Assembly: GCA_941918925.1 (NCBI GenBank)
Contig: OW799233.1
Location: forward strand, 175,987,235-176,051,234
Source of the DNA: Phyto melanocephala
Taxonomy: Eukaryota; Arthropoda; Insecta; Diptera; Rhinophoridae
DNA length: 64,000 nt
Direction of reading: 5' to 3'
The notes under the pieces were generated by a model, which worked only from the letters and a program-made list of their open reading frames with translations, had not been told where the DNA came from and made no database searches. The translations under genes were made by a program, and so were the position numbers. How positions within the stretch are numbered: position 1 is the first letter of the stretch; every line of letters starts with the position of its first letter. This document shows positions 15,759 to 59,430 of this stretch, piece after piece.

Positions 15759-16438
15759 GTACATCGGGATTAAATGAGACAGCAAGCTGTCAACCTCTCA
15801 AAAGAGGAAGGCCCCGCAAGATTCCATTGGCTGAAAAAACACAGAAGATAGTGAACAAAATTAGTCAAGCCATTAAGAATCATCCTGGCCAACCCCTTCT
15901 ATATGGATCTACCACTAAAGGGACTATGAAATTATTGATCGACGGTCACCACTTTCGCTATTCATTCCGCAAGGGTAAATATACTATATTCCAGTGTTGC
16001 TACAAGGAAAACAAACAGGAATGCTTAGTTCGTGTGGTTACTGACCAAAAACTGGTTTATCCTTTGGATGGCGAACATATACATTACATGCAGGCTACAG
16101 ATAAAAGTGTTACGTCTATTAAATTTTCTCCCGGCGAGATGGAACCAGAAAATATAAATATTGTAACGGATATGCAAGATATACTAACGCTAAACAGACA
16201 AGAACATGTAACATTGAATGTTGACGACTTAAAAGCGCAACAAATTCAATCGAATTTAAATCTAGATAACAAGCCATTGCAGCACACGTTAGAATTTAAT
16301 GCAGAATCGTCAAGCGAACAACCTTTTACGGTGGATACTAAGCAAAGCGAGGAAACATCGACAGAAGATGCTAATGAGTTTCGTGAAAAAATTAAAAAAC
16401 GTTTGCAAAAGGCCCTGTTAGGCAAAAAGAAGCAATAA
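15759..16438 (+). CDS. mod(mdg4): mod(mdg4) alternative C-terminal exon, plus strand: AT-hook + divergent FLYWCH
   Basis: Alternative 3' exon of mod(mdg4), opposite in strand to the common exons, so it must be joined by trans-splicing. It follows a TTTTTAATTGGCTAG acceptor. The exon starts with two bases that complete a Gly codon from the common exon, then stays open for 225 residues to TAA. Residues about 11-20 contain KRGRPRKIP, an AT-hook-like minor-groove-binding motif. Residues about 50-112 form a divergent FLYWCH-like finger (FRYSFRKGKYTIFQCCYKENKQEC, then HIH). The usual Trp before the first Cys is Gln here. The tail is lysine-rich (KKRLQKALLGKKKQ). An AATAAA lies 4 bases after the stop. 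There is no true in-frame initiator. This is the longest variable exon in the window. Confidence 0.88.
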
Positions 16439-18404
16439 GAAAAATAAATGCCCACATTGTCATCAAATCAACCCAACTGGCTGTCTAAAAGTCAACCTAA
16501 CACAAATAAAATGTTTTTTTTACAAGATAGAAGAAAATTTGTAAAATTAAAGAAACAGGTTATAAAAAAGGTGTGTTGGGAATGACAATGCAGATTTATC
16601 AAACGTCGGCCAAGTGTGAACCACGGGCAGGATAAACTTTTCTTTCAAAAAGGCACCTTAAAAAATAAATATAACTTAATTTTTACTAAAATTTAAACAC
16701 CTTTCAAATAGGAAACGACGTTATAAGCGTTAATAGGATATCGCGATTATTATACATTTTATATAGAACTTAAATTTGGTACTACAAAAATTTTAAATAT
16801 CTGTATTTTGCATGCAATATTTCTTGAAAAATTTTTATGGTTCAGAATTTCAATACCACGTATTAAAAGTTTTGTCTTTCTGTATTTCTTAATTGGCAAA
16901 AGGTACCTTAACAAATAAGGTACGAACGGGATAAAAAAATAGTATTTAAAAAGTGCTAGAAGGTGAGTAAGAAAAAACACGGTCACTAGAAGGAGGATAA
17001 TGTTGCTCTAACAACGATATAGAAATGTTTCCTTAAATTAATACAATATTGTTTGCTTCGGCAATACGGATCGGTTTTAAATAGTTTTGAATAATTTTCT
17101 ATAAAATAAAAAAAAAAAACACTTATTAACTTTTGCTATAGAATTCTCTGTTTTTTGGTTTGAAATGGTTTCGTAAATTTACCTCAAGTTATAATAGCTA
17201 TCTATATTCCGGTACGTCATGTAAACAGATAAATACAATTTTTTGTGGGCAGTAGAATCTTTTCTCTAATTCTAACTACTTTTATTTGTAAAATTTTACT
17301 TATAAGAAAATTAAAAATTAGTTTTATACTTTAACGTTTTCAAAGTAAACTAAAAGACCATGCTACGAGTGAAATTAAATCGTTCGAAATTGTCCAAACA
17401 AAGTCGGAATGTTTTATTTCACTGTGAATGCATAACATGGGCGAATATATTAAGGAGCATTTATGTTTCTACTAATTTAAAAGAAAATTATTTTTAAAAC
17501 CAATATAAAGTTTTTTAACTCTTATAATATACTTTTTCAACACTTGCACTCTTAATGTAATGAATTCATTAAGCGTGCTATTATATCATAATTTCCTACA
17601 ATTTTAAAATTAATAAAAATTATTTGATTGAAAAATTTTATTTGTTCATTGTTAAACCATTTGAAACTTTAAAAAAAAATTGTGACAATACGACAGTTAG
17701 AACACCTTTTAAATTTATTAGCTTTTTTTTTTTTGTCGATACATTTGTGAGCAGACTCAATCTGTTTGGACTGCAATCGCTGTATACATGATTACATAAT
17801 TGGTATATTCTCAAGAAAAATAATTAAAGTAGTAAAGTTTTTAAGCATCTTTTGAATTCATTAAATGTTTATTATGTTACGGAATATCCAACATCTATAT
17901 AAAAAATGTTCTTTAATAATAATATAATACTTTCATTATTACTAATACTTTGTAATAAATCTGTTTAATTTTTTAGTTATACTTTAAAACGTTTACATAT
18001 TTGGGATATTATAAATCCATCAAATATTTACCGATACTGTACTATAATGAATTGTTATAACATTATTTAAATGAATTTTATTTTTGTTTTTTTGAACAGT
18101 AATTAATTACCTACATATAAAAATTAAAAAAAAAAAAAGAAATATTAAAAACTTTTTATTTCAGTTTATTCAAACCGCATGCCTATATGGTGCCTTATAA
18201 TACATTTCTATTCAATTTAATCATTAAAGTTTTTAAGAATACTTTTTTTATTCACTTGAATATTATTACACATATTAAATAATAAATATAATATTCACTC
18301 TTTAAAAACTGTAATGTTCATGTCTTTTTAATAAAAACATTATGAATGTTTAGCAAATAAATATGTTTCTCTTACATTTTCTTTAAAATTATTCTTTTTT
18401 ACAG
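16439..18404. other. Spacer between two plus-strand variable exons
   Basis: AT-rich. Nothing coding recognised beyond the downstream acceptor at 18401-18404. It may include the poly(A) region of the 15759 unit and the outron of the 18405 unit. Confidence 0.4.
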
Positions 18405-18617
18405 TTATGCAACATGTCCGTAATTGTGGTCCCCAATTGTTTATCATCAGCCGTAAGGGGGGCACATTATTGGCCATTAATGATTTTATTTATAGATCAA
18501 ATTTAAAAAGATTTGGTCCATTGTGTGATAAAGTCTATTGGGAATGTATACACAATCGTTCGAAAAAATGTCGCAGTCGTTTAAAAACTGTTGGTGATGA
18601 TCTGTATGTAACGAATG
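18405..18617 (+). CDS. mod(mdg4): mod(mdg4) alternative C-terminal unit, plus strand, exon a (FLYWCH N-half)
   Basis: The acceptor CTTTTTTACAG is followed by TT, which completes a Val codon from the common exon. The frame then runs VMQHVRNCGPQLFIISRKGG... with the start of a FLYWCH finger: TLLAINDFIYRS, then KVYWECIHNRSKKCRSR. The exon ends AATG|GTATGATT. Skipping a 66-base intron (18618-18683) joins it in frame to exon b, which supplies the H-x-H of the finger. The unspliced reading frame would stop soon after, without the histidines, so the intron is needed to complete the domain. The whole unit is on the opposite strand to the common exons, so it would need trans-splicing. Confidence 0.85.
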
Positions 18618-18683
18618 GTATGATTATGTTTAGTTGTTTATTAAAATTTTTAGAAGAGTTTTAAATTTGGAAAGTTTTTCTAG

Positions 18684-18802
18684 ATATTCACAATCATTCC
18701 GGTGATGGCCAACGTATAGAGTTGGCACGAAGATCGGGTATGTTGATCTACAAAAAATTTAGTGCTATTGGTCTATTGCCCAATAAACCACCATTTCAAT
18801 GA
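18684..18802 (+). CDS. mod(mdg4): mod(mdg4) alternative C-terminal unit, plus strand, exon b (FLYWCH C-half)
   Basis: Begins after TTTTTCTAG and joins exon a in phase 1 (AATG + AT gives Asn-Asp). It encodes DIHNHSGDGQRIELARRSG and a short tail ending LLPNKPPFQ, then TGA. The H-N-H is the zinc-binding end of the FLYWCH finger begun in exon a. Unit length is 109 residues plus the junction residue. An AATAAA follows at 18844. Confidence 0.85.
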
Positions 18803-20576: not shown

Positions 20577-20857
20577 TTAATGTGTATGAAAAGGATGTGT
20601 TATTCTATAGCGAATATCACTTCCGATTTGTTTAGTACACGCTCGTGCTTTACACAAATACTTAACATACATGGAACAACGCCAACTAGACACGTAAGCA
20701 GATTTGTTTTTCGGTTTAGTATCGCAGACAAATGAATAATTATCAATTAATAATATTGGACGAGATTTTTTTGATAAACCAAAATTAGCGCATAATTGGA
20801 AATTTTCTGACATCTTATCGGGAGAGTGGCAGTTGAATGTGTTATGCCCCAGTTTAC
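20577..20857 (-). CDS. mod(mdg4): mod(mdg4) alternative C-terminal exon, minus strand: FLYWCH (tandem copy 1)
   Basis: The minus-strand acceptor TTTTTATTTATAG is followed by GT, completing a Gly codon from the common exon. The frame GKLGHNTFNCHSPDKMSENF... stays open for 92 residues. A FLYWCH finger covers most of it: SRPILLIDNYSFVC, W-R-C-S near residue 64, L-C-K-A-R, and C-terminal H-P-F-H-T-H at the very end. It lies on the same strand as, and about 36 kb downstream of, the common exons, so cis- or trans-splicing is possible. It is a close paralogue of the exon at 21098-21375 and of the pseudoexon at 21633-21900. Confidence 0.87.
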
Positions 20858-21097: not shown

Positions 21098-21375
21098 TTA
21101 ATGTGTGTGAAAAGGATGTGTTATTTTGTAACGAATATTACCGCCGATTTGTTTAGTACAGGCTCGTGCTTTACACAAATATCTAACGTACATGGAACAA
21201 CGCCATCTAGACCCATAAGTTGATTTAGTTTTCGGTTTAGTATGACAGATAAATGAATAATTTTCAATTAATAATATGGGACGAGATTTTTTTGATAAAC
21301 CAAAATTTGCAATTAATTCAAAATTTTCTGATAGCACATCTGATGAGTGGCATTTAATTTTATGCTGCAATTTAC
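21098..21375 (-). CDS. mod(mdg4): mod(mdg4) alternative C-terminal exon, minus strand: FLYWCH (tandem copy 2)
   Basis: The acceptor TTTTATTTTTAG is followed by GT, completing Gly, then KLQHKIKCHSSDVLSENFEL. 91 residues. The FLYWCH finger runs from SRPILLIENYSFIC to W-R-C-S, YLCKAR and the terminal HPFHTH. It is near-identical in layout to the 20577 exon, with the same SKKSRPILLI and ACTKQIG strings and the same terminus, so it is a tandem exon duplication. The acceptor has also been duplicated. Confidence 0.87.
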
Positions 21376-21632: not shown

Positions 21633-21900
21633 TTAATTGAAAGGATGTGTTCTTTCTTGACGAATATCACAATCGATTTGTTTAGTAACTGTTCGTGCTG
21701 TACACAAATACCTAACAAGCATGAAATAACACCAACATAACCAGACATATTTTTCGGTTTCATATCGCAGATAAATGAATAATTTTCAATTGGCAAAATA
21801 GGTTAAGAATTCTTTGATAGACCAAAATTAGCACATAATTGAAAATATTCTGACATCGTAGCGTAAATGTGGCAGCTACATGCTTTATGCTTCAATTTAC
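21633..21900 (-). pseudogene. mod(mdg4): Decayed third tandem copy of the FLYWCH exon
   Basis: The minus-strand acceptor TTATTTTTAG followed by GTAAATTG still looks usable. The frame starts GKLKHKACSCHIYATMSEYF, clearly the same exon family. An in-frame TAA (21805-21803) stops it after LSKNS, where the copies read LSKKSRP. Downstream an indel shifts the frame, so the W-R-C and K-A-R parts of the finger are lost. It would encode only about 31 residues without zinc ligands. It is a pseudoexon of the tandem group. Confidence 0.85.
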
Positions 21901-23228: not shown

Positions 23229-23782
23229 TTACTGCGGGGATCGTTTAAAACCACCATTAGCAGCTGGATTATTTCTATTGCTTGATGATAATGAATCACT
23301 ACGCAAAAATGCTGGTATGTTAGATATTAAATTCGAGTTTGTTGTTGTCGATGTGCCAGCCATAAGTGATGCAGACGTGGTTACACATGGCATTGATTGT
23401 ACATGAGGTTTTGTTTCCTTACCGCTGCCTGCAGTTGGTGTGTATGTCATTATTAGAGGAGAACTTGTTAAAGTCATGGGAAAATTTGCGGGAAACTTTA
23501 GGTCGCTTTGATTAAAGCAACTTAAATTTTTGGCAGAACAATATAATTGGCACGTAGGTAAAATTTCTTTATGACGGCGTTTTATGTGACTTAAGAAATT
23601 GCCAGTTGATTTCGTTGTGCCCGAAATAGTACCATAACAAGAAGTACAGGTGGCTTGTATACCTCCTGGCGTTTTGGGATGAGGTTGTATATTACTATAA
23701 AATCTACCATCCAATATTTTGGGCAGATTTAATGGACGACGGAATTCATCACCAGTAGAAGAGAAAGCCTTTGATTTATTAG
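23229..23782 (-). CDS. mod(mdg4): mod(mdg4) alternative C-terminal exon, minus strand: BED-type zinc finger, no FLYWCH
   Basis: The acceptor TTCTATTTTAG is followed by CT, completing Ala; the frame reads ANKSKAFSSTGDEF... for 183 residues to TAA. Residues about 27-80 look like a BED finger: aromatic-rich RFYSNIQPHPKTPGG, C-T-S-C, ISGTTKSTGNFLSH, then H-I-K-R-R-H. A second Cys pair (CQLYC) follows. The C-terminal half is Ser/Thr/Asn-rich and probably disordered. BED fingers bind DNA and occur in chromatin-boundary proteins (BEAF, DREF) and hAT transposases. The phase-1 acceptor and location make it a mod(mdg4) terminus rather than a separate gene. No FLYWCH residues are present. Confidence 0.82.
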
Positions 23783-24023: not shown

Positions 24024-24370
24024 TTAATCACTCAACAAACCCACCATAGAACGCATTAAACCCATTTTTGTATCTTCTATGCTAAAATCTGGTGTCATTT
24101 CCACTAATTCATCAGTTTTCATTTCGGGATCGTGTGTATGCGGTGAACCTGCTACACGTATCGAAACATCATCGTTAACCTTAGAAGTGACGACAGTGGC
24201 TCGACATCCATACTTAACGTAGCGCGAACAACGCCAAAAAATATTTTTATGACTTTGGCGATTTTCAACATAACGATAGCCATTATATATTAACATCACA
24301 CGACCTCTTTGTGTAGTTGAATATTGAATATAAGTGGTGGCATTTTTATCATCGAATATATATTTGATAT
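24024..24370 (-). CDS. mod(mdg4): mod(mdg4) alternative C-terminal exon, minus strand: FLYWCH
   Basis: The acceptor TTTAATTGCAG is followed by AT, completing Asp. DIKYIFDDKNATTYIQYSTT precedes a FLYWCH finger: QRGRVMLIYNGYRYV, F-W-R-C-S near residue 60, YGCRATVVT, then PHTHDPE. An acidic/Met-rich tail (MKTDELVEMTPDFSIEDTKM) ends 114 residues. It lies on the same strand as the common exons. Zinc-ligand spacing is normal for the family. Confidence 0.87.
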
Positions 24371-24645: not shown

Positions 24646-24758
24646 CTATGCAGATGCTGTTCCTTTGGACATGTTGAGAATTTTTTGTTCAATGAAACGC
24701 TTTACTACATTGTTGTCAATCGTTTCGCCACGCAAGGTGAACACTTGTACAACATGAT
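24646..24758 (-). CDS. mod(mdg4): mod(mdg4) BEN-domain terminus, exon b (minus strand)
   Basis: The acceptor TATATTTTTAG is followed by AT, then HVVQVFTLRGETIDNNVVKR and FIEQKILNMSKGTASA, TAG. It joins in phase 1 to the exon at 26206-26439 (GTTG + AT gives Val-Asp) and completes the helical BEN domain. Because its acceptor phase equals that of every other variable exon, it could in principle also be joined directly to the common donor. Confidence 0.8.
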
Positions 24759-25249
24759 CTAAAAATATAGAAAATATATAAAAAAAAGAGTGTAATTAAT
24801 TTAAGATATATTAAAAAAGTTGATGGACGTATTCCTAAAAGTATGTTGCTTTGCAGTTACTAATAACAACTTCTTTGAAAACGGAACCCTTTATTTTGCC
24901 AACGACAAGAAAATATATATAAAATAAATGGTTAATTCAATTTTGTATTCATTATTGTAAAATTTTTAAAAATAATGACACCTTGTAAACTAGTCAAATA
25001 TGTACATGTATATTTATTTTTAAAGATTTCGTTTTGAAAAAAATAAATTAATTTATTATTGCAAGGCAACATGGTTAGGTATACATACACACACACAAAA
25101 TATATTTAATAATTTAATAATTTACCACATATTTATAATCAATTTTTTAATTAACTTAAAGTTTATAATACAAATTTTGTTATTCAATAAACGTCTAAAA
25201 AAATATAAATATTTTTTTTTTTATAATAAGTAGCTTTTATTAACCGTAT
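24759..25249. other. Intron of the BEN unit (part 1)
   Basis: AT-rich intronic sequence between BEN exon b and the MITE at 25250. Nothing else recognised. Confidence 0.5.
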
Positions 25250-25457
25250 CAAGGCATATTTATTCATCAGGTAATTGCAGTTCGGAGAGAATTTTTTGTT
25301 TATATTTTTTATATATGAAGTTTGGCATTTGAAACAAATTAGAAAAGAGAGAAAATTGTTTTTTATTTATGCATTTTGACAGCTGAAATTTAAAATAAGT
25401 GTTGAAAAAAATAATCAGCTGGCGAATCAAGAGTACCTGATGAATAAATATGCCTTG
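25250..25457. mobile_element. CAAGGC-family MITE inserted in the BEN-unit intron
   Basis: The inverted ends CAAGGCATATTTATTCATCAGG and CCTGATGAATAAATATGCCTTG are perfect over 22 bp. Both sides carry TAACCGTAT (25241-25249 and 25458-25466), a 9-bp (or 8-bp plus chance) target duplication. 208 bp, non-coding. Confidence 0.85.
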
Positions 25458-25466
25458 TAACCGTAT

Positions 25467-26205
25467 ATGGCCTTATAGGCTCGGTTATGTAAATGAAGAA
25501 TTAATAAAAAAAAAAAAAATATGGAAAAGAGCGCAAACAACTTTGTGCTATCGTCTTTAGTGATAATCAATTTGCAAAAAGACCGCTGGGGACTGTATGG
25601 ATATTTCCATATATTTATTTATGAGCCCATAAAAAGTTTCAATCTATATTTTTTGAATTTAAAATTTATATACATACGAGTTCAATCCATTCCGCACTTC
25701 TGACCCTAACAATATTTCAATATAAATTCTGATATCGTTGTTAGTGCAATCAAAATTTTATTGGTTTTGTCTATATAAAACGTAAACAATAAAGTAATGT
25801 CTTTAATTGAACAAACGAACCCATTATCTCGCAAAAAAATAACTTTTTATGTTAACCCACGTAAGAATGTTCTTCTATACCAAACCTATCCAGCAGTTTT
25901 TATGCAATTCAGCTTAGAACAACAAAAGTTGTAAAAATTAGAGTTTTGAATTTAGATTGTTGGAAATACTCGAAATATTCAATGCACAGACAGTATTTTA
26001 CTATTTTATTATAAGTAAAGATTATGCAAAGAACAGTACATATTTATTTATTTATTTATTTACATATTTATTCAAAAATATGCATAGATACATATAATAG
26101 GTATAGGGCTTTTCGATAAATTTTAAATTTTTGGAAAACAAACTTAATTACTGCTTTTTAATTAATTAACTAAGCTTTTAAGATTTAATGGAAAAATGTA
26201 CTTAC
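25467..26205. other. Intron of the BEN unit (part 2)
   Basis: Intronic, AT-rich. A 60-codon plus-strand open frame (25521-25703) has no family features and is not called. A TTTA-rich short repeat is at 26042-26070. Confidence 0.45.
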
Positions 26206-26439
26206 CAACAACCGACTTTAACAAATCCTCATTTAAAAGTTTTAAGCAATCCATTTTGTCGGACTTGGCTACCTTTTCCAGAGTTTCCAAGCCAAATACT
26301 AAATCGCTTAAACGCGAAGTATATATACAAGAATTTGGTATAAAAATTTTCATTAAATCATTCTTGGCGACATAAACTCTACTTCCAGCACACAAGGGAA
26401 TTTTGCCAGGAGCAACTGCAGGAGGCTTTTTGAACAGAG
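26206..26439 (-). CDS. mod(mdg4): mod(mdg4) BEN-domain terminus, exon a (minus strand; isoform C-like)
   Basis: The acceptor TTTTATTTTTTCAG is followed by CT, completing Ala; the frame reads ALFKKPPAVAPGKIPLCAGS then RVYVAKNDLMKIF, TSRLSDLVFGLETLEKVAKS and LLNEDLLKSVV. It ends GTTG|GTAAGT, a strong donor. The alpha-helical pattern with L-V-F-G-L-E-T-L fits a BEN domain. The BEN domain was originally described from, among others, Drosophila Mod(mdg4) isoform C, so this is probably the isoform C equivalent. It is completed by the exon at 24646-24758 across a 1.45 kb intron that has received a MITE. No FLYWCH. BEN domains mediate DNA binding and repressor contacts. Confidence 0.83.
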
Positions 26440-44976: not shown

Positions 44977-45132
44977 CTGAAATTAAGAAAGAAAAAGTTA
45001 AAAAAATATTATTGGGCAAAAAAAAAATTCTTTTTAAATAAAAATTATATATGTATGTACATATATGTATGTATATTTGTAAACAAAATTTTAATATTTG
45101 ATATTCTATTAGTTCTATACATATTCACTCAC

Positions 45133-47981: not shown

Positions 47982-48412
47982 CCAGGCGAATTCATTATCA
48001 GGTGAAGTTATTAAAGCAGCTGTTTATCAGCTGAGCACTCTTTTTATTATTGAAATGTCAAATTTTGTTTGTTTTTATGAGTACTTCTACTTTTTTATTG
48101 TTTACATTTGTGGGCGCCATTAGTTGAAAAATTTTTAAAATTGTGCAAATCAAGGCATATTCATTCGCCTTGGTGCAAATTCTCTTAAAAATTGTAAAAA
48201 AGAGATAAAAAACATTGTGAATGTAAAAAATTTAATAAAACGTTAAAAACTAAAATTAATAAAACAGTATTTTTATTTGTGAATAATGCGTGTGTGCTCT
48301 TTGTGCAAAAAGAAATATTTAAAGGGCAATGGAACTTTGTTCAAGTTAGTTTACACTAACAAAATACACGTTGTATTTTTTCACTTTGTAGTTGTTTATT
48401 GAATTCGCCTTG
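47982..48412. mobile_element. CAAGGC-family MITE with 8-bp target duplication
   Basis: Left CCAGGCGAATTCATTATCAGG and right TTGAATTCGCCTTG. GGCTGTAG duplicates on both sides (47974-47981, 48413-48420). The interior matches the copy at 6837-7274. A second, 22-bp family insertion sits inside at 48151-48172. Confidence 0.85.
48151..48172. mobile_element. 22-bp minimal TIR-only insertion with 8-bp duplication
   Basis: CAAGGCATATTCATTCGCCTTG consists only of the two family termini. It is flanked on both sides by GTGCAAAT (48143-48150 and 48173-48180). It lies inside a larger member of the same family; the copy at 6837-7274 lacks it. Confidence 0.75.
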
Positions 48413-50020
48413 GGCTGTAGTAACTAATTATTTCTCTACTTTACAAAAGTAAGACCCTTTTCTGACTAGGCAAGTCTCTTGCGCAAGTAAGTTTTTTAAT
48501 TTCTTTAATTTTCCTTTGAACTTGCTTTCATGTTCAGACTCAGCAATTAACTTGCCCAAGTTTCGTTCTCTTTTACTTATTATACTCTTCACACTGTGAA
48601 AAAGGGTATATATAGGTTTGTCATTCTGTTTGAAATTTCTACAATTATCAATTTGTTGAAATCAACTTTCTGAAGCCCCATGACATCGCCTGAACCCGGT
48701 ATTAAAATACCAGAAATATTCGGGAATAGATCATACATAAACAACTGAGATATGAGCAAAAAACCACTACCACCTCGTTTTTTTCACAACAACAGCATAC
48801 AACACATACATACAAACGTGGTGTACTGGTTAGATTGGGCCAAACTTTTTATTTTATATATTATTTATATTTTTACACATAAGTATACTTAATTTATAAT
48901 ATTACAATGGGATGTTTTTATGTGATTTTTATATGTATGTACGTATTTCATATGAGATAAATGGTGATATAAACAATTGTTGTTGCATGACTACACCTTG
49001 TGAAGGGTAATAAAGATTCGGCATGGCCGAATATAGCACTCTTAATTTAATTTTGTGACATTTCTTTTTTGTTTCTCAATGAAAACTTGCTTGTACTTGC
49101 CGAGTACAGGCAAGTGTGTACTCAAATATGAGCAAGTTTTTTACACCCAATTTACATGATGAATTTTATGACGTCCAATTTTCTTAATTCCCTTTTGAAG
49201 TTGTTACCAAAAACTTCTCAAATTTATACGATGGTTTTTTTTGGACGTCTAATTTCTAATTTTAATATTCTTACTTATAACTGTTATAACTTATAACTGT
49301 TTAATATTTTTTTATCAGTCAAAAAGCACAATCCAGTTGATGAGAATATAAAATATAACAGAAAAAAGTGTAAAACGAAGTGTCAAAAAAAAACCATGTC
49401 TACGGCAACAAAAAACGATTAAAATACATTTAGTTTTATATATGTATGTGTGCATGTCAGACAATTTTTTTCTTTAATTTAAATTATCCAAGGCGAATTC
49501 ATTATTTGACAACGCAGCTGATCTACTTTTTTATTTGCAAAAATGATGATTGTATTGTCAAATATTATTTATGTTTAAGCAAAAACGTCGGCAGAATAAC
49601 GGCACTTTATTGCTAAGGTATGTTTATTTTCACTGGGTGGAGAACACGACACAAATAATTTATTTTTATAATTTAATATTTTTGTTTTAACTTTTATGAG
49701 TTTTTTTGGAATACCTCACTCTTAATTATTATCAGGTAAAATTATTTTAATTTTCCTTTGTTTGTGCAAAGAAAAACATAAAATTCAAAGAAAATTAAAC
49801 GATTTTGACAGCTAATTGCGGCAATAATTGCTCAAGCAATCAGCAGAGCAATGATTGCGCAATAAATTGCTACATATGGCAATTTGCGGTCTACACCTTG
49901 CAATTTCTATGGACGCAATCAAATTTGACAATTGCGGTAAGAAATATAGGCGGACTTCCAAAACGTCAATTGCTTTGTGTTTGAATAAAGCATCATATAT
50001 CATAACGCCGCAGTACAATA
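48413..50020. other. Last common intron: dispersed repeat and unclassified DNA
   Basis: 48589-49050 is a member of the dispersed family (GTGAAAAAGGGTATATATAGG..., ending GATTCGGCATGGCCGAATAT). A CAAGGCGAATTC family terminus is at 49491 without a clear partner. The rest is unclassified. No gene. Confidence 0.5.
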
Positions 50021-50165
50021 ATTCAGCCTTATTGTCATTGGCGTTGTCGTATTTTTTGGTACCGTGTAATATTTACGACAATGTAAAATGAATGAACCCT
50101 TGTCGTATTTCTGTCGTTTTCGACACAAAAACGACACGACAACGCCAATGACAACAAGGCCGATT
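50021..50165. mobile_element. Foldback MITE (GCCTTATTGTCATTGGCGTT family), copy 1
   Basis: GCCTTATTGTCATTGGCGTTGTCGT on the left and ACGACAACGCCAATGACAAC with AAGGC on the right are inverted. An internal GGTACCGTGTAATATTTACG is shared with copy 2 at 51413. Confidence 0.7.
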
Positions 50166-51412
50166 ATACAATGTATACCATTTTAAAACGACGCCGCCAA
50201 GTATTTTTAAGGCAATAAGAAAGCAAACAATGCATCGCTTTTATAGTTGATGCAGTGTTTCGGAACTTTGCATATGGATGTGATTTAAATACAGTAGCAA
50301 TACTGTATACGAACGCTTTGTAAGTCACCCATTGCTACGTGGAGACCCCTAGTATTAATCACAAGTTCGGTCGTTACCCATAATCAGGGTACACTTACAT
50401 ATAGAAATGGCGGTGCCAACCTAGCTTATTTTTTTTTTTTGAGCCAACGTTTCTCAAATTATGAGGATTGTCACTCCATATTAAAAAAAAGCCAAAATTT
50501 GCTCTCCTTTACGATATCACCTTATGTAATTATACCATGCCCATAATGGACAATTTTCGTTTTGGACCCGGCATTAAATGCCGTTGCTCTATTAGAGCAA
50601 CATCCCCAACCTATCACTAAAATCATAGTTTCACTTTGCAAAAATTTCCGTTAAGTTGAAATGTTAATGCAATTTATTAAAGTCTATCAAATTGTTACAG
50701 AATTTATGAGTTGTAATAGGGGCAATGATTTTTACGTATGAATAAATATGGTTGTCCAAAAACGCATAATTTAAAACAATGCGTTTGCAATGCTAAACAT
50801 GTGTTAAGTGAAACCTTTAGCATACATTGTCTCTGCAACAGTGTTTAATCATTAGTCTGTGATTTAAATAAACTCTATCAATTATAAATAATTTATCCAA
50901 GATAAACAAGAAAATACTTAGCCATTGCAGCTCAAATGTTTGCATACAAAATAAAAATGTTGCGCGATTTTGGCAGCAGGTACTTATTAAAATGAGTTGC
51001 CAAGCGATTAGGAACATTGGACGTTGCCAGAAAGTTTACATTTGCGTTTACGCAGTGTATGCATTGCAACTTGCGTTTAGGAAGCCGGCCATAATATCCT
51101 TATGAAGCCGGGTTTTAAGATACACGTTACTACAAATCGAACCAATTCATAAGGCAATATAATCACGAAAAGATAAATTATCTGGCGCGCAATTTTCCAT
51201 CTGTGAAATTAAGTTTTTGTGCGTCATATCATATGTTGCCACTGTACATTTTCGGCGCTGTTCTGACGTAAACGGTTGTGACAGCTTAAAAAAATTATCG
51301 CATTTTGAACCTGTTTAGTCGTACTTCTAACCACCAAGCCGTATATCTTAATTGGTTCAAAATTAAACAAGTCGATATGTGTAAGTTTAACACTATGAAG
51401 CATCAGAATAAA
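50166..51412. other. Last common intron, unclassified DNA between two MITE copies
   Basis: No gene recognised. Several TTGC/GCAA-rich short inverted motifs are present (49815-49890 and around 51060). Confidence 0.4.
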
Positions 51413-51534
51413 ATCGGCCTTATTCTCATTGGCGTTTTTGTGTCGAAAACGACAAGGTCTCATTCATTTTACATTGTCGTAAATATTACACGGTACCAAA
51501 AAATACGACAACGCCACTGACAATAAGGCTGAAT
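51413..51534. mobile_element. Foldback MITE (GCCTTATTGTCATTGGCGTT family), copy 2, inverted
   Basis: Carries CGGCCTTATTCTCATTGGCG at one end and CGCCACTGACAATAAGG at the other, and CGTAAATATTACACGGTACC, the inverse of the copy-1 interior. Confidence 0.7.
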
Positions 51535-51569
51535 GTTTTTTGCTCTCCTGAAAACTTGGTAAAAAAAAA

Positions 51570-52400
51570 AAAAAACAACAGTGCTATATTCGGCCGTACC
51601 GAATCTTATATACCATTCACAACGTGTAGTCATGCAATTACAATTGTTTGTATCACCATTCATCTCATATAAAATACGTACATACATGTAAAAACATGCC
51701 ATTGTAAAATTATAATAGAGTTTACGTGTTTCTAAAAAAAAAAAATTTTTTTTTGGCACAGCTGGGATTCGATGCCACGTATACTTTAACCAGTAAATAT
51801 GTATGTTGTTGTTGTAATTGTGAAAAAAAAGAGGTGGTCGTGGTTTTTTACTCATCTCAGAAAGTTATAGGGCGATTGTGCTGAATTTCAATAGCGATTC
51901 ATTCCTGGATATTTCCAAGAGGTTGACACCATTTACAGATCTGAGGAACATATAGTTGCTTCTAAAAGTTGATTTCAATCAACACACGGACAGGGTTTAA
52001 TCGACTCTTCTATTCATAAGCTTTCAGAAAATATTACCCCTATTATGGTTCTCCACTCAACATAGTTTGGTTGTGTGAGAGTCAACCCAACTTATGCACA
52101 ACCAAACTCATTTTAGGTATTGTGATACTCAACTGTTTTTAGTTGAGTTTCACAACGTTTCAACGTTTTTGTCGACCAAATTTTTTAAAAGTTGAAAACG
52201 GTAATGCCACGAAAAAATAGATACACAACTGAATAGTCAACTGGAAGTTGAGAATGGCAATGTCAATTTGCCAAAGACAACCAAACTGTTACAAAAGTGG
52301 AGAACCGCAATAGGGGCATATATACTTTATGGGGTCGGAAATGAAAATTGTAGAAATTACACCTTGTGCACCACAGGTGAAGGGCATAAAAACATAACTG
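51570..52400 (-). repeat. Dispersed repeat family member, inverted, with nested MITE
   Basis: On the minus strand it matches the family at 7540 and 60215, including ATATTCGGCCGTACCGAAT at its left end. It is interrupted at about 52035-52318 by a foldback element. Confidence 0.65.
52035..52318. mobile_element. Foldback MITE nested in the dispersed repeat
   Basis: TACCCCTATTATGGTTCTCC on the left pairs with GGAGAACCGCAATAGGGGCA on the right. The host repeat sequence (GAAAATAT / ATATACTTTATGGGGTCGG) resumes on each side, so this is an insertion. Confidence 0.65.
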
Positions 52401-52465
52401 AATTTGCTAGAACAGCGACTTTTCATATCACAGAACAAGAATTGAGCCCCTTGTGGCTTTATTAA

Positions 52466-53218
52466 TCTATATATATAAAAGTGAAACTCTGTGTGTGTTA
52501 GCTATAGACTCCGAAACTACAAAACCGATCGGGCTCAAACTTTGGTAAGTTGTTGTACACATACCAGGGAGTGTTTATGGGTGAAAAAAGTGGGCGGAGC
52601 CACGCCCATAAAAAATTAAATATCAGTTTTAAAAAAGTTTTAATTTTGAGGTACTTGCACTGGACCGATTTTTCTGAAACTTTGCACACATAATAGGCTG
52701 TCATGATTTTATAATTTCGTGATTAAAAAAATGGGCGGGGCCACGCCTATAAAAAAAGTTTATAATTTTGAGGTACTTGCACCAGACCGATTTTTCTGAA
52801 ACTTTGCACACATATCGAGCTATCATGACTAAATAATTTCATGATTAGAAAAGTGGGCAGTGCCACGCCCATAAAAAATAGGTATAATTTTGAGGTACTT
52901 GCACTGCACCGATTATTCTGAAACTTTTCACACATATTGAGCTGTTATGACTTTACAATTTTATGATTAGAAAAGTGGGCAGGGCCACGCCCATAAAAAC
53001 AATTATAATTTTGAGGTACGTGCACTGGTCCGATTCTTTTGAAACTTTGACACATATTGAGCTGTTATGACTTTATAATTTCGTGATTAGAAAAGTGGGC
53101 AATGCCACGCCCATAAAAAAATTATAATTTTTAGGTTTTCGCACTTGATATTAAATTAAAATTCAGAATGCATTTCGATTCATTAAGGGGCGAAGCAACG
53201 CGCGCCGGGTTTGGCTAG
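52466..53218 (+). mobile_element. Helitron (non-autonomous)
   Basis: Starts TCTATATATATAAAAGTGAA after A and ends CGGGTTTGGCTAG before T. Inside is a roughly 110-120 bp tandem unit (AAAGTGGGC...CACGCCCATAAAAA, GAGGTACTTGCACTGGACCG, CTGAAACTTTGCACACAT) repeated about five times. Same family as the copy at 63489. Confidence 0.85.
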
Positions 53219-54747
53219 TACCATATAAGTTCAAGTTTTGCAGTTTAACAGCATGGCACATACTTATCTACTAATTTCATACTAAGTTATCGTAACGTCT
53301 ATATCGATTTATTTCAGTTGTTGGCGTCGTTTTTGTTACTACCGTTAGAGATATTAGTGTTTTCGGCAACGTCCCACAACTGGAGTAAAGGGTATTTTTA
53401 AATTTTAGTTATTAAAAATTTAACGCGGGGCTACTCTACAATACCGATAACTAAAAGAAACTAAAGTATAATATAGTTAATCATGAAAAAGGACATTGAC
53501 TAAACAGAAACATACATGTATTACAACACAACGAGCTGCTGTTTTAATTCCTAATTTTACGCTTGCGTACTTTTTGCTCAAAATGTTTTCCCGAGTGTGA
53601 TTCTTTTTAATTACCCAGCAAGAAACTACCGCAACTTCAATTGTAAACATTTTTAATGACTTCTAATTCAAAGTGCACAAGTAGGCATGGAAAATGCCTT
53701 CGCGAAATCCAAAATAGTTATCCTTTAATTATGTTTAACTCATTAAACACGATTTTTTTTTATCTACTCGGTATAAATGTCTGCTTTGAATGACACGTTA
53801 ATGTTAAAAAAAAATCATGCACGTTTTTGGTGATAGTGTGTACAGAATTTTACAAAATCTTTTTATAATGGGCACCCCAAAATTTAAAGTTGTCAGGATT
53901 TTTCAATTACGAGATCCCTTGCCCTATAGATGGCCATTATCGGTTTGGAACACAGTAATCAGACAGCCTATAAGACCTCTTGTTGTTCTCCCCTATGTTA
54001 TACATAAGGCTGTATTAATCTGAAAAAAACTGCTCAACCCTTATACGACCGTTGATCACATCTGACAATCCCTCAGGGATAATAAACATATGAAAACACA
54101 TATAAACGTACAGTGGCGACTTACAAATCTCACTAGCTTTGGTGATGATTTCATAACTAGTGATAGGAATTTAGCTACAAAAATTACTTTTTATCTATTA
54201 GGAACAAATATAGCAACATTTGATAACCCAACATCATTGTACCATTTTATATGAAGCTTGACGTTTCTTACGATATCATTTTCGCAATTCTATTAGCACT
54301 GAACGGTATAATATAAACTGTATGTACGTATTAAAAAAATTTACATATTTTTTAATACTCTTAAAAAACAATCTTATTTATTTACAAGTTAATTAACAAT
54401 GTTAAACTTTTTCTGAAGCACAGAATATTTTTTTTTTTAGACAAAAAAAAAAAAATTTCATATTTACCATAAATGGCAAAAAGGAAAAACTGCTCAAGTT
54501 GGCAAAAGCTTAAATTGAAATAATCAAACACATCGAGATCCTGGATAAAAACTACCTTCAGGCAAACTATTTTGGACAACTATACAGGAATTTATAGTAT
54601 AAAACTGGAATAACTTTGTTAAATATGCGAAAATCAATATGCACTAAAATTTATATAGCGCAGAATTCAGTCTTGTATTTTAAAAATCTACTCAAATATT
54701 TAAAGTGCTTTCCTGAAAAACTATAGAAGCAGGCACAGGTTTGCTTA
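53219..54747. other. Last common intron, unclassified DNA
   Basis: No gene supported. A lone MITE terminus (ACCCAGCAAGAAAC) lies near 53613. A 68-codon plus-strand open frame at 53817-54023 shows no family features and no exon-like acceptor. Confidence 0.4.
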
Positions 54748-55395
54748 AGGCTATAATACACGGAATGTTTTTTTACATCTGACTGTAAAATTTGTGAGAC
54801 ATATGTAAATCTACATGTCTGTCAAAATTGTACTTTTACGCTGACTGCTTTGCAGTAGCAGATATTTCTGCCAACGACTGATGTCACTTGTTGTTACAGA
54901 AGAAAATAAAGCGCACTCTAATTAAAATTTTGTCAGATGTCTCAACACATGTTTTTTACAGAAGTAATGTTTTAAAGGTAACACACGACATGTTTGTATT
55001 AGCAGTGGAGAATTTGACAAGTCAGACGTAAAAAACATGCCGTGTATTAGCTCCTTTAAGGCTACTTATACACGGCATGTTTTTTACATCTGACTTTAAA
55101 TTTGTGAGACATATGTAAATCTACATGTTTGCCAAAATTGACTGTTGACTGATGCCACAAGTTTTGACAGAAGAAAATAGAGCGCACTCTTATAAATTTT
55201 TTTTTACAAAAGTAATGTTTTTAAGGTAACACGACATGTTTGTATTAGCAGTGGAGAATTTGACAAGTCAGATGTAAAAAAAAATGCCGTGTATTAGCTC
55301 CTTTAAGCAGCTAATACAAGACATGTTTTTACATCTGACTATACAAATTCCACACTGATGGATGCGAACATGTCGTGTTACCTTTAAAACATTAT
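54748..55395. mobile_element. Three head-to-tail foldback MITE copies
   Basis: Copy A (about 54748-55060) and copy B (about 55062-55308) each begin with a TACACGGcATGTTTTTTACA-type end. Each closes with its inverse, GACGTAAAAAACATGCCGTG or similar, followed by TATTAGCTCCTTTAAG. Copy C (about 55308-55395) is truncated. They share GTGAGACATATGTAAATCTA and GGTAACACGACATGTTTG inside. Non-coding. Confidence 0.7.
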
Positions 55396-55572
55396 TCTGT
55401 AAAAAAAGAACCATTTTAAAATTTAATACAATTCAAAATGTTTTTACTGGGAAGCTTCATTACATTAAAAATATTTTTTCCAAGATTTAATTTTAAAAAA
55501 TCAACCTTTTCAAAACATAAATTTTTCACAATAATTGCAACAAACGTGTTTCGTTTACAATTTTTAAAAGCC

Positions 55573-55620
55573 TAAGGCTTATTTGACAAATTTCTCTACA
55601 ACATCTGTCAAATAAGCCTT
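55573..55620. repeat. Perfect 15-bp hairpin in the last common intron
   Basis: AAGGCTTATTTGACA and TGTCAAATAAGCCTT are perfectly complementary and enclose an 18-base loop. In mod(mdg4) pre-mRNA this would fold about 320 bases downstream of the U1-complementary motif. A related AAGGCTTATTTGACAGATGT occurs at 63180, so it may simply be a piece of a dispersed repeat. Confidence 0.6.
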
Positions 55621-55940
55621 TAATAAACCTAAAAATGTTTTTTATGAATACGGCCCTTAGTATATATAAAAATATGTATTAAACGTCTAACAACCACAAG
55701 GGCCAACTTACGCAATTTCTGTAACTTCTGATACTTGATGAAAATTTTTGTTTGCCCTTTTGTTTATATATATATTTAATTTTTATTTATTTAAAACAAT
55801 CGGATGTTAATTGCTGTAATATTATTTTTAAATTCTTGATACTTTTTTTTTTCAATTACTGTTAAATAAAATTTGAAGCGACAAAATCATAAATGTAATT
55901 AATTTGACTTTTCACTTTTTAAAACAAATTTAACAAATTT

Positions 55941-55958
55941 TGTACTTACCCGTTGTTG
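55941..55958 (-). promoter_or_regulatory. U1-complementary intronic motif, candidate trans-splicing activator (TSA-like)
   Basis: The minus strand reads CAACAACGGGTAAGTACA. The GGGTAAGTA part pairs with the 5' end of U1 snRNA over nine or ten consecutive positions (ideal CAGGTAAGTA, one A-to-G). It lies in the middle of the intron after the last common exon, 1.07 kb past the weak donor CAAG|GTTGGT. In Drosophila a conserved 13-nt U1-binding core (TSA) in this same intron is essential for mod(mdg4) trans-splicing. Identity with that motif is inferred from position and U1 complementarity. The alternative is a true donor of an alternative first exon: an ATG lies just upstream and gives a phase-1 end (ATG ACA ACA ACG G|GTAAGT). 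Confidence 0.6.
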
Positions 55959-57028
55959 TCATATCTCTTTTATTATTCAATATATTTTTTTTTTAGGTTT
56001 AGCCATTTTCCACATATTATAGATGCACTTTGTTTTTTAACTTGCCACTATTTGACATTTTAGAACGGAATATGTCACTTGTGGTTTTTTTTTTTTTTTT
56101 TATAAAAAAACGAGTTCTTTAATTTAACAACAACTCCACATTTATATAAAAGCTCATTTGTGTTCTGCCCATCGTGTATAAAATTTTATTTTAAAAACAA
56201 ATATTTACAAAAAGGACCATTTTGCAATACTGTTTCCAAAATTTTTACTTATTACTCATATAAAAATCTTTTTATATGATGTCACGAAGAAAACAACAGA
56301 GCTTTTAGATTTTAAGGATTGAAGTTGTTAAATAAACAATAAAATCTTAGCTGTAATAAAAAATTTTGTGCTTGCATGCCACAACATGCAAAAAAATTTC
56401 ATATTCAAATACAATTTTTTCTTTTATGTAAGCTTATGCGATTAAAAGAAAAAATTGATAATTTTGTAACGTACACAAATTCTTTCATTTTTAAAACAAA
56501 ACTTTGAAGTTAACTTTTAAACATTTTTTTTCTTATATATTGCTAAGATTTTATGTGCAAGAAAAGTACTATTAATTACGCGCGCGTATACTTTTGTTGA
56601 TCTTAAATTAATTAAAATCTAGTTTTTGTTTTAAGCTTTAAACCTGTGTAAATTAAGGTGATAATGTACATCCAGAAAGGATTACCTTTATTGATACAGG
56701 TTTTTAAAGCGAACATGGAAGAGGAGTAAGAAATCAAAGCGATAGTTAGATAATTATACATCTTTTCAGCTCATTTAAGTTTCTAATAATACGGAACTGT
56801 TACAAAATTATTATTTAAACATGTGCATTTGCATTTTTATGAGCAATTGTTGGTGTTGATCGCTTGGATTTATTACAAAACTCCACCAGAATTTTTTAAA
56901 TCTAAAAATATTTTATATGCAGTCACAAAACAATTTTACAGTTCACAAGAAGAGACACTGGCGTCTAGCGCCTAGAGTTTTTCAGTGACATGCAGTTGTT
57001 TTGTGAGAATAATAAAATGTCAACCAAC
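55959..57028 (-). other. Last common intron, 5' part
   Basis: Minus-strand intron sequence between the common donor and the U1-complementary motif. AT-rich with no further exon recognised. If the donor is not used, the frame runs 14 codons into the intron before a stop. Confidence 0.6.
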
Positions 57029-57887
57029 CTTGTGCATCATTAATTGTGGGATCTGCAGATGTATCCATGTATGAAGAATCAGAAAGTAGTTGCTGCTTTA
57101 CAATGGCCTTTGAAGTGGTAGCTGTTGTTGCAGTTGTAGCTTGGACAGTAGTCGTCGTGGCATTACCACCCCCTGCAGCAGCTTCCTCATTTTCGGTAAA
57201 GTAACTTTCATCGTAACGCATATCTCCATAGGATTCGTCTTCAACATAGGTAGCATCCTGTTCAGCCTGATCAACATCGCCAGCATCTTCGGCATAGTCT
57301 GGTTCAGATTTCGTGGGCAAATCGATCGGCAAGTCAATGTATTCAGGTTCATTAGATTGTTGCGTCTGTTGCTGATGTGTTTGATGCTGTTGTTGACCTT
57401 GTGTTTTATCTGCGACAACAGTTTGTACGTTTATTTGATGCGTGGCAGATGTCGCATCTGAACCCTCTAGGGGATCAATTGTACTCTTTGAACGTTTAAT
57501 ATGCGGTACACTACCTATACTAGTGCGTTGGGCGGGTCGTTTCTGAGTTACCACTGTTGTGGTTGTGGCCGCTGGCAAACTAACACTGGTAAGCTGATGG
57601 GTTTGAGCGTGTAGTGTTTGTTGCGTTATATGTTGAGGCTGATGATGTTGCTGCTGGTGAGGTTGGGTGGTAATTGTTGCTTGGGGTGGATGTGATGGCG
57701 CCGTTGTTTGTATGACTATTTGCGTAGTTTGTTTTGCATCATCGCCGGAATCATCGACAGTTTCAATTTTATATGAGCGGGCAGTTGAAGTACGTTGCCG
57801 TACACGAGGCGATGTTTGTATTTGTTGTTGTATTTGTGGCGTAGGTGTTGAAGGTTCAGGAGGAGTTTGAGATTGTGGTGGATCACT
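57029..57887 (-). CDS. mod(mdg4): mod(mdg4) common exon 4: Q/T-rich linker, last shared exon
   Basis: Begins after TTTCTGTTTACAG with SDPPQSQTPPEPSTPT and continues without a stop for 286 codons plus one base. Recognisable conserved strings are SYKIETVDDSGDDAKQTTQI, EYIDLPIDLPTKSEPDYAED and YVEDESYGDMRYDESYFTEN. Together they identify mod(mdg4). The exon is Gln/Thr/Pro-rich with an acidic second half and is probably disordered. It connects the BTB dimerisation domain to the variable C-terminus. It ends ATT AAT GAT GCA CAA G|GTTGGT. That is a weak donor (GTTGGT instead of GTAAGT), and its one-base overhang is matched by every variable exon in the window. Confidence 0.95.
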
Positions 57888-58533: not shown

Positions 58534-58673
58534 ATCAGTTAAACCTTTTATTTGCAAAGCCTCCGCAGTACTTATAAACGCTGGAAGGGCCTCTTGTTTT
58601 ACATTCACCTCTCCACAATACATGAATTGGATCAGGTCTTTTAAAGCCGTATGGCTAACATCTTTGAGAAACA
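58534..58673 (-). CDS. mod(mdg4): mod(mdg4) common exon 3: BTB domain C-terminal half
   Basis: Begins after AAATTACAG and completes a Val codon. It encodes [20 protein letters not shown] then [20 protein letters not shown] and QIKGLTD, the end of the BTB/POZ fold (the MYCGEV and ST-A-E-LQIKGL motifs). It ends GAT|GTAAGT in phase 0. Together with exon 2 it makes the BTB domain used for dimerisation and for contact with other insulator proteins. Confidence 0.95.
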
Positions 58674-58738
58674 CTGTAATTTAAAGCATAATTTAACATT
58701 TTAATAAATTTTTAATAGAAAAATTATATAAATCTTAC
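58674..58738 (-). other. mod(mdg4) intron 2 (65 bases)
   Basis: Minus-strand intron from GTAAGATT to TAAATTACAG. It interrupts the BTB domain in phase 1 between HAF and VFL. Confidence 0.9.
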
Positions 58739-58952
58739 CAAAGGCATGTTGATTGGCTGGCATTTGAGTGAACATTTTACGAAAATAGGGCGAACAGACA
58801 GACAGCACAAGACGATGAGCCTTGACAAATTGTCCCTCTGCCGCCAGCGTCACATCTACTAGATCGCCGCGACATAGCGATTCATGGAAACCGGCAGATA
58901 AATTACTATTAAAATTATTCCAGCACAACGAGAATTGCTCGTCGTCCGCCAT
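58739..58952 (-). CDS. mod(mdg4): mod(mdg4) common exon 2: start codon and BTB domain N-terminal half
   Basis: The ATG at 58952 opens [20 protein letters not shown], then [40 protein letters not shown] and [11 protein letters not shown]. This is an almost unchanged mod(mdg4) N-terminus and a classic ttk-type BTB domain. I chose this ATG over an in-frame one five codons upstream because the family always starts MADDEQF. The exon ends TTTG|GTAAGA. Mod(mdg4) is a nuclear BTB protein that acts in gypsy-insulator function, position-effect variegation and, through single isoforms, meiotic chromosome pairing (known from Drosophila). Confidence 0.97.
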
Positions 58953-59430
58953 ATTGAATGGTAACACTATTCACAGCGGCGTACCCTAGGCGTATGATAT
59001 TATACACACACAACGAAAAAAGTCAATATCTATGTATTCAAGCCGTGCACTGCAAATGTAAAGAAAATTTAAGTTTTACTTTAAAATTAAAAACATTTTT
59101 GATGTTTATCGGCTTTAATAAATTTAAATGATTAGACTGACAACATGAATGTAGAAACAAACAAAAGTTGAAAACGAAAATACACAAGTACCGCAAAACA
59201 AAAAGTGGTAATTTTAAACTAATTTAAGTCATTAATAATTCAGATTAGCTTGCCAGCAGAGTTAAAAACTTACCTTTCTTGATTATAATTATAAAATTTT
59301 TTTTTTAATTGTGATAATTAGATTTTTATCCGCACTATATTTTTCCCAATCTTTATTTTTGCACAATGAAACACAAAACATAAGACCCGCACAACCTCAC
59401 GAATTCGTAAACTGTTCACAAATGAGACGA
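58953..59430 (-). promoter_or_regulatory. mod(mdg4): mod(mdg4) 5' UTR, 5' intron and probable promoter side
   Basis: On the minus strand a good donor AAGAAAG|GTAAGT stands at 59274/59273 and a possible acceptor CGCCTAG ends at 58986. This suggests a UTR intron of about 290 bases and a 5' UTR exon upstream of 59274. Further upstream, CCAATCAG (about 59501) and GAATATCGAAAAT (about 59443, resembling a DRE element) are candidate promoter elements. The transcription start cannot be fixed from sequence alone. Confidence 0.45.

What the first reader, a model, noticed from the sequence alone, without database searches (positions are those of the whole stretch)
15759..58985. A 43-kb mod(mdg4) locus with alternative C-terminal exons on both strands: trans-splicing is obligatory for nine of them
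Seen: common BTB exons on the minus strand; 19 intact terminal units, nine on the opposite strand and ten on the same strand, plus a pseudoexon. Known: Drosophila mod(mdg4) joins common exons to opposite-strand 3' exons by trans-splicing. Inferred: the same mechanism operates here across a locus expanded by transposons. The number of opposite-strand exons and their clustering in blocks make this a strong comparative case.
Basis: partly seen in the sequence, partly recalled or inferred. Interest (0 to 1): 0.95.

Follow-up and report, generated by a model that had tools for sequence, protein, structure and literature searches.

The report
Fly mod(mdg4) trans-splicing locus
This is a blowfly-like fly's copy of a well-known Drosophila gene that builds dozens of chromatin proteins by joining one shared front half to many alternative back halves, nine of which are written on the opposite DNA strand and so could only be attached by splicing two separate RNAs together.

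Summary
The window carries the mod(mdg4) locus of a calyptrate fly (common region 93% identical to Calliphora vicina). Two corrections: the window cuts the locus (17 more minus-strand FLYWCH units lie to its left: 36 units, about 103 kb, no gap), and trans-splicing probably serves all isoforms, as in Drosophila, not nine only. Support: D. melanogaster isoforms T/67.2, 59.0, AD and 62.3 best match plus units 15759, 18405, 30106 and 32459; an apparently RNA-derived contig from an unnamed insect joins the common part to the 32459 homologue; NCBI gene models of calyptrates contain 19 of 27 minus tails but 1 of 9 plus tails. Known mechanism, new member; the added value is that the opposite-strand arrangement appears older than the drosophilid-calyptrate split, with Stomoxys T a possible re-flip. 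No RNA of this species was examined, and five of nine plus units have no full-length counterpart.

The parts
58739..59049 (-). common exon 2 (ATG at 58952; first part of BTB)
   Evidence: splice sites and frame; BTB family match C1:176045980-176046123
58534..58673 (-). common exon 3 (second part of BTB)
57029..57887 (-). common exon 4 (Q-rich region, ends in ...NDAQ + G; trans-splice donor at 57029, phase 1)
   Evidence: homologous to the end of the Drosophila common region
46882..57028 (-). intron 4 up to the nearest same-strand acceptor (10,147 nt); two U1-complementary sites at 55951 (+1078) and 47223 (+9806), -13.3 kcal/mol each
15759..16438 (+). opposite-strand terminal exon, FLYWCH, counterpart of D. 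melanogaster isoform T (67.2)
18405..18802 (+). opposite-strand unit in two exons (18405-18617, 18684-18802), counterpart of isoform 59.0 (71% over 100 aa)
28607..28869 (+). opposite-strand FLYWCH terminal exon
   Evidence: no full-length counterpart found
29102..29382 (+). opposite-strand FLYWCH terminal exon; groups with the minus unit at -2881 (support 91/99)
29590..29837 (+). opposite-strand FLYWCH terminal exon
30106..30356 (+). opposite-strand FLYWCH terminal exon, counterpart of D. melanogaster isoform AD (61% over 79 aa)
31934..32301 (+). opposite-strand FLYWCH terminal exon
32459..32883 (+). opposite-strand FLYWCH terminal exon, counterpart of isoform 62.3 (57%); its homologue is joined to the common part in P0121 (69%)
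33458..33804 (+). opposite-strand FLYWCH terminal exon
20577..20857 (-). same-strand FLYWCH terminal exon (91% to a Cochliomyia isoform)
21098..21375 (-). same-strand FLYWCH terminal exon, near copy of 20857
21636..21900 (-). degenerate third copy of the 20857/21375 exon (interrupted frame)
23229..23782 (-). same-strand terminal exon without FLYWCH (BED-like zinc finger, below Pfam cut-off)
24024..24370 (-). same-strand FLYWCH terminal exon (best match of D. melanogaster AB)
24646..26439 (-). same-strand two-exon unit without a Pfam domain (26439-26206 and from 24758); about 85% to Lucilia isoforms
43942..44291 (-). same-strand terminal exon with a weak zinc finger, best match of D. melanogaster isoform S (34% over 89 aa)
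44436..44674 (-). same-strand FLYWCH terminal exon
44823..45295 (-). same-strand FLYWCH unit in two exons (45295-45133, from 44976); 96% to a Lucilia isoform
45654..46126 (-). same-strand FLYWCH terminal exon (best match of D. melanogaster 60.1)
46451..46881 (-). nearest same-strand FLYWCH terminal exon (best match of D. melanogaster isoform N, 56%)

Best explanation
This is the mod(mdg4) orthologue of a calyptrate fly. A donor transcript from the minus strand carries the common exons (BTB, Q-rich) and ends in intron 4. Separately started transcripts from both strands carry the terminal exons. The spliceosome joins donor 57029 to an acceptor on one of these transcripts in trans, giving at least 36 isoforms that share 404 residues and differ in their (mostly FLYWCH) tails. 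For the nine plus-strand units no cis route exists. For the 27 minus-strand units cis-splicing is geometrically possible, but by analogy with Drosophila trans-splicing is the likely route there too. Shown here: exon anatomy, strands, phase, homology of tails. Inferred: separate promoters, termination in intron 4, the trans joining itself.
For: Exon anatomy and phase. D. melanogaster T covers 100% of the spliced common + 15759 protein, and T, 59.0, AD and 62.3 have plus units 15759, 18405, 30106 and 32459 as best match; in 59.0 the alignment starts at the first residue of the exon, and in 62.3 and AD within a few residues of it. T, 59.0 and 62.3 have no counterpart among the 100 other-Drosophila proteins compared, whereas 10 of the 11 D. 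melanogaster tails that best match minus units have at least four (p = 0.011, or 0.004 if AD is counted with them). This is expected if they lie on the opposite strand, where an ordinary collinear gene model cannot join them (general knowledge). P0121, a 473-residue protein from a 1764-nt contig, runs from the BTB part through the end of the common part into the 32459 homologue without introns, so it is presumably RNA-derived. NCBI gene models of calyptrates hold 19 of 27 minus tails and 1 of 9 plus tails (p = 0.003). In the 69 BTB matches listed for this genome none but this gene's own two lies within 7 Mb, so no separate plus-strand BTB donor was found. In D. melanogaster nine isoforms use opposite-strand exons (PMC4667647 and PMC4528330, passages) and all isoforms are reported to be trans-spliced (PMC12692577).
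Against: No RNA of this species was seen. Five of nine plus units (28607, 29102, 29590, 31934, 33458) have no full-length counterpart in the 241 proteins collected. The direct search with eight plus tails is insensitive: it missed P0138 (59.0) and P0130 (AD), which came only, so its silence on the other tails means little. AD is ambiguous: its record is labelled n=5, melanogaster subgroup, so AD proteins seem to exist in other Drosophila species; counted as present the contrast is 3 of 4 against 1 of 11, p = 0.033. AA, which best matches a minus unit, also has no counterpart. Five of nine plus units have an in-frame ATG in the open frame before the FLYWCH core, so separate translation is not excluded by sequence. 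The Drosophila terminator (NTT) was not recognised: no primary sequence was at hand, the strongest hairpins in the first 3 kb of intron 4 look like repeated DNA, and Rfam gave nothing at 46000-58000. A Stomoxys gene model (P0001) contains the T tail, which suggests that T is on the donor strand there, so the layout is not uniform in calyptrates. The strand of each D. melanogaster isoform was not read from a genome or from a paper that names them.
Confidence: 0.93

Rival explanations
1. The plus-strand units are independent FLYWCH genes with their own starts, not parts of mod(mdg4).
For: 5 of 9 plus units have an in-frame ATG before the FLYWCH core; each of the nine has a poly(A) signal within 250 nt of its stop, against a random expectation of 0.67; five have no full-length BTB counterpart in the proteins collected.
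Against: 4 of 9 have no ATG at all before the core; all nine have an in-phase acceptor; counterparts of four are C-termini of full-length BTB proteins.
Confidence: 0.04
2. Assembly artefact: one or two blocks are inverted in the contig, and all units are really on the minus strand and could be cis-spliced.
For: Gall midge and mosquito gene models (P0124, P0125) and the Stomoxys T model (P0001) join some of these tails to the common part. The window has 19 inverted-repeat pairs of 60 nt or more.
Against: 184 kb without N. None of the 19 pairs brackets a single plus block: the longest two flank the element at 9.1-12.9 kb, and those that span the array (arms at 5-8 and 44-61 kb, 66-111 nt, 71-88% complementary) would turn plus and minus units alike. 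Gene models of other calyptrates and of Drosophila mostly lack the same tails, which an error private to this assembly would not explain.
Confidence: 0.02
3. Mixed mode: plus units are trans-spliced, but most minus units are ordinarily cis-spliced from a long donor transcript.
For: Minus units are collinear with the donor; gene models in relatives join them.
Against: In D. melanogaster same-strand isoforms are also reported to be made in trans because transcription stops in intron 4 (PMC12692577, PMC11727487). A gene model says nothing about cis or trans. The array here spans about 100 kb with mobile elements inside.
Confidence: 0.2

Closest known systems
mod(mdg4) of Drosophila melanogaster (31 isoforms, nine with opposite-strand exons; PMC4667647, PMC4528330, PMC9723646, passages)
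   Same: Common BTB exons plus alternative, mostly FLYWCH terminal exons on both strands; nine opposite-strand units in two groups; counterparts of T, 59.0, AD and 62.3 among the plus units; the N counterpart nearest to the donor.
   Different: 36 units instead of 31; extra tandem copies on the minus strand, four units with split FLYWCH; terminator in intron 4 not identified; which D. melanogaster isoforms are the nine was not read.
mod(mdg4) of mosquitoes (Anopheles, Aedes; PMC4667647 and PMC4528330 passages)
   Same: Common donor with alternative FLYWCH acceptors.
   Different: Acceptors are reported on the donor strand there.
mod(mdg4)-like loci of Lepidoptera (Bombyx, Danaus; PMC4667647 passages)
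   Same: Acceptors on both strands, trans-splicing documented.
   Different: Danaus uses mostly opposite-strand acceptors over 550 kb; homology of single exons to the fly units was not tested here.
lola of Drosophila (named in PMC12692577 and PMC4528330; otherwise recalled)
   Same: BTB common part, alternative zinc-finger tails, some trans-splicing.
   Different: The tails here are mostly FLYWCH, and the common region matches mod(mdg4) proteins.

Membership tests
mod(mdg4) gene | Common N-terminal part with BTB domain, homologous over its whole length | tested here: met
   65.5% identity over 380 aligned residues to D. melanogaster, 93.1% over 404 to Calliphora vicina; BTB match
mod(mdg4) gene | Many alternative C-terminal exons, most with a FLYWCH domain | tested here: met
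   36 units, 33 with FLYWCH; D. melanogaster 27 of 31 (PMC9723646 passage)
mod(mdg4) gene | Acceptor exons in one common phase with the last donor | tested here: met
   an in-phase acceptor adopted in 36 of 36 units; the best-scoring AG is in phase in 31 of 36; random-draw control 23.2 +/- 2.1 of 33
mod(mdg4) gene | Some acceptor exons on the opposite strand (Drosophila, Lepidoptera) | tested here: met
   9 of 36
mod(mdg4) gene | Chimeric mRNAs made by trans-splicing | not testable with these tools
   no reads from this species; full-length homologous proteins from relatives are indirect support
mod(mdg4) trans-splicing control elements of Drosophila | U1-binding sequence in the last common intron | tested here: inconclusive
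   two strong U1-complementary sites at intron +1078 and +9806; the Drosophila motif (Gao 2015, not held) could not be compared; sites with 9 or 10 of 11 matches occur 28 times on the minus strand and 31 times on the plus strand of the 184 kb
mod(mdg4) trans-splicing control elements of Drosophila | NTT terminator (79-nt structured element) in intron 4 | tested here: inconclusive
   hairpins found in the first 3 kb, the strongest within repeated sequence; no primary sequence at hand to compare

The most novel reading that the evidence does not exclude
The two opposite-strand blocks are not a Drosophila peculiarity but date from before the split of drosophilids and calyptrates, and were kept since, while single exons can still flip: T is on the opposite strand here but apparently on the donor strand in Stomoxys. 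Exon orientation in this locus would then be nearly neutral because joining is always in trans, and standard annotation silently loses the opposite-strand isoforms (including the insulator isoform T) from most calyptrate genomes.
Probability: 0.57. Interest if true: 0.5.

Novelty: new member of a known kind. Interest (0 to 1): 0.42.

Why it matters
If the mapping holds, it moves the origin of strand-discordant mod(mdg4) exons back beyond Drosophila: PMC4528330 (passage) thought it likely that the small inversions happened since Drosophilidae diverged from other dipterans, whereas four exons whose counterparts are D. melanogaster isoforms are on the opposite strand here. It gives a clean prediction set (nine junctions) for RNA data in blowflies, offers a reason why calyptrate gene models lack these isoforms, and makes Stomoxys T a natural test of whether orientation matters for isoform output.

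Tried and rejected
A tree of the 33 FLYWCH cores was built to see whether the plus units descend from one inverted block: 20 of 30 inner branches are open and strand is not clustered (8 changes, shuffled mean 8.0), so it says nothing about the number of inversions; p29102 and m-2881 pair (91/99). Search for the Drosophila intron-4 elements: no sequence of them in the parts of papers seen; folding gave hairpins in repeated DNA; Rfam gave nothing over 46000-58000. PDB search with the T tail: four matches at E 0.29-0.32, to a fatty acid-binding protein, taken as chance. BEN domain in unit 26439 (suspected because PMC5094011 mentions a BEN isoform): not detected by Pfam. The binomial phase test printed (chance 1/3) overstates significance, because 60% of candidate AGs are in phase. 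One search also printed a Fisher test with a hand count of 15 of 16 minus tails; the scripted count is (14 of 15), from a hand-listed set of 103 calyptrate rows with source label 'ncbi' (size checked). In one search I compared 15 D. melanogaster tails; rows left out as variants of the same tails were P0116 and P0127 (T) and P0140 (59.0); its 100 'other Drosophila' rows include a few records from nr only. Searches list 120 of 2243 and 120 of 1674 hits; the lists reach bit scores (560 and 785) below those of the species used for the counts, so I treat them as covering the cluster representatives of those species, which is an inference.

Print status of calyptrate mod(mdg4): searches for 'mdg4' with Musca domestica, Lucilia and Glossina, and a wider mixed search (too broad to be useful), listed no paper whose title or abstract start concerns its trans-splicing; Calliphora was not searched alone. 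Key subscription papers were not read: Labrador and Corces 2003, Gabler 2005, Gao 2015 and Tikhonov 2018 are not held, and Krauss and Dorn 2004 was seen only as a citation. A prior description is therefore possible.
Full report
WHAT IS THERE. The window is C1:175987235-176051234 of a 740-Mb genome in 9 contigs. The minus strand holds the common exons of mod(mdg4): coding pieces 58952-58739, 58673-58534 and 57887-57029 join to an open frame of 404 codons plus one base.

TERMINAL UNITS. A FLYWCH profile built from the window and run over 184 kb (window, 100 kb to its left, 20 kb to its right, no N) found 33 intact FLYWCH units. Three further minus units (23782, 26439+24758, 44291) lack a FLYWCH match but match isoforms of other calyptrates. 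Total 36: 27 minus and 9 plus. Four of the outside units have a FLYWCH split by an intron of about 1.5-3.0 kb. Degenerate copies: about 21900-21636 in the window, and fragments near -41857 and -41496. Non-FLYWCH units outside the window were not sought, so 36 is a lower bound.

PHASE AND STARTS. An acceptor in phase with the donor (G|NN) could be adopted for each of the 36 units. The best-scoring AG is in phase in 31 of 36 (28 of 33 FLYWCH units, 8 of 9 plus units). Because 60% of candidate AGs are in phase, random choice would give 23.2 +/- 2.1 of 33, so this alone is modest. No in-frame ATG exists between the preceding stop and the FLYWCH core in 4 of 9 plus and 17 of 24 minus FLYWCH open frames. 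Poly(A) signals lie within 250 nt of the stop in 9 of 9 plus and 24 of 27 minus units, against random expectations of 0.67 and 0.65.

RELATIVES. A search with the spliced common + 15759 protein (the best 120 of 2243 proteins were listed) found D. melanogaster MMD4 (610 aa, isoform T/67.2) over 100% of the query, and many calyptrate isoforms. A search with the other eight plus tails concatenated, limited by length to full-size proteins, found five: P0121 from a 1764-nt contig, D. melanogaster 62.3, D. pseudoobscura h62.3, and isoforms of Sitodiplosis and Armigeres. That search is insensitive: it missed D. melanogaster 59.0 and AD, which (query D. melanogaster T; 120 of 1674 listed) brought in. 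By best match, D. melanogaster T, 59.0, AD and 62.3 correspond to plus units 15759 (39% over 215 aa), 18405 (71% over 100), 30106 (61% over 79) and 32459 (57%); the other 11 D. melanogaster tails compared have minus units as best match. N, the acceptor drawn next to intron 4 in D. melanogaster (PMC11727487 figure legend), corresponds to 46881, the first here. The 59.0 protein also supports the internal intron of unit 18405 (both read ...LYVTND-[VI]HNH). Five plus units (28607, 29102, 29590, 31934, 33458) are the best match of none of the 241 proteins collected.

STRAND SIGNATURE. An ordinary collinear gene model cannot join exons on opposite strands (general knowledge). T, 59.0, 62.3 and AD have 0 counterparts at 60% identity or more over 60% of the tail among 100 other-Drosophila proteins; 10 of 11 tails that match minus units have at least four, and AA has none (Fisher p = 0.0037). 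Against this, the AD record is labelled as five members from the melanogaster subgroup; without AD p = 0.011, with AD counted as present p = 0.033. Calyptrate rows with source 'ncbi' (103 rows, set by hand) include, at 40% identity or more over half the tail and as reciprocal best, 19 of 27 minus tails and 1 of 9 plus tails (p = 0.0029; for tails of 110 aa or more 14 of 15 versus 1 of 5, p = 0.0049). The sets are cluster representatives at 90% identity, so absences may be hidden members on either strand. The exception is T in Stomoxys (P0001, isoform X1), best read as T lying on the donor strand there.

HOW IT WORKS. In D. melanogaster all mod(mdg4) mRNAs are reported to be made by trans-splicing from separately promoted acceptor transcripts (PMC12692577, sections seen), transcription of the donor stops in intron 4 at a structured element (PMC11727487, sections seen), and a U1-binding sequence in that intron matters (stated in a passage of PMC10645366; the original was not read). 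Nine isoforms use opposite-strand exons (PMC4667647 passage), and two of five acceptor clusters are on the opposite strand (PMC4528330 passage). The layout here also has nine, in two groups (15.7-18.8 kb and 28.6-33.8 kb). Intron 4 here has two sites that pair with U1 at -13.3 kcal/mol, at +1078 and +9806; the next best is -8.0. These are candidates only. P0121 runs from the BTB part through the join into the 62.3-like tail in one frame; as the common exons are separated by introns in this genome, the contig is presumably RNA and then shows the chimeric mRNA in some insect whose name and exon strand are unknown.

ASSEMBLY. 184 kb without N. The window has 19 inverted-repeat pairs of 60 nt or more; none brackets one plus block, the two longest flank an element at 9.1-12.9 kb, and several weaker ones span the whole array. 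Other species' gene models lack mostly the same tails. Raw reads were not available, and DNA uniqueness searches did not complete.

VERDICT. A well-understood system in a new species: new member of a known kind. The gain is comparative: the opposite-strand arrangement seems to have been shared by the ancestor of drosophilids and calyptrates, contrary to the suggestion that the inversions arose after Drosophilidae diverged (PMC4528330). In this revision the odds of the best explanation and of the novel case were lowered slightly, because the plus-tail search proved insensitive and AD proved ambiguous.

Noticed in passing
left of window, C1:175942638-175984392 (window coordinates about -44597 to -2853): 17 further minus-strand FLYWCH terminal units, including four whose FLYWCH is split by 1.5-3.0 kb introns, three of them close relatives of each other and interleaved with their neighbours.
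   Followed up: yes
window 47213-47240 (-): TTTTAG immediately followed by GTAAGTATG, about 340 nt before the 46881 acceptor: it looks like a zero-length (recursive) splice site or the donor of an acceptor-transcript leader exon.
   Followed up: no
window 43942-44291 (-): Terminal unit whose best D. melanogaster match is isoform S; both show only a weak DDE_Tnp_1-like zinc finger (Pfam, below cut-off), which hints at a tail of transposase origin.
   Followed up: partly
window 39256-43099 (-), 9643-12081 (+), 37587-38582 (-): A non-LTR retroelement with endonuclease and reverse transcriptase, a second reverse-transcriptase frame flanked by inverted copies of 265 and 371 nt (9087-9687 and 12258-12861, 96-98%), and a frame with a DUF4817 helix-turn-helix, inside or beside the array.
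   Followed up: partly
protein P0001 (Stomoxys calcitrans isoform X1): The T tail is present in a gene model of Stomoxys although it is on the opposite strand here: a possible flip of a single exon.
   Followed up: partly
window 54740-55390 (-): Repeated palindromic units in intron 4 (hairpins to -35 kcal/mol in 80 nt), probably a small inverted-repeat mobile element.
   Followed up: partly
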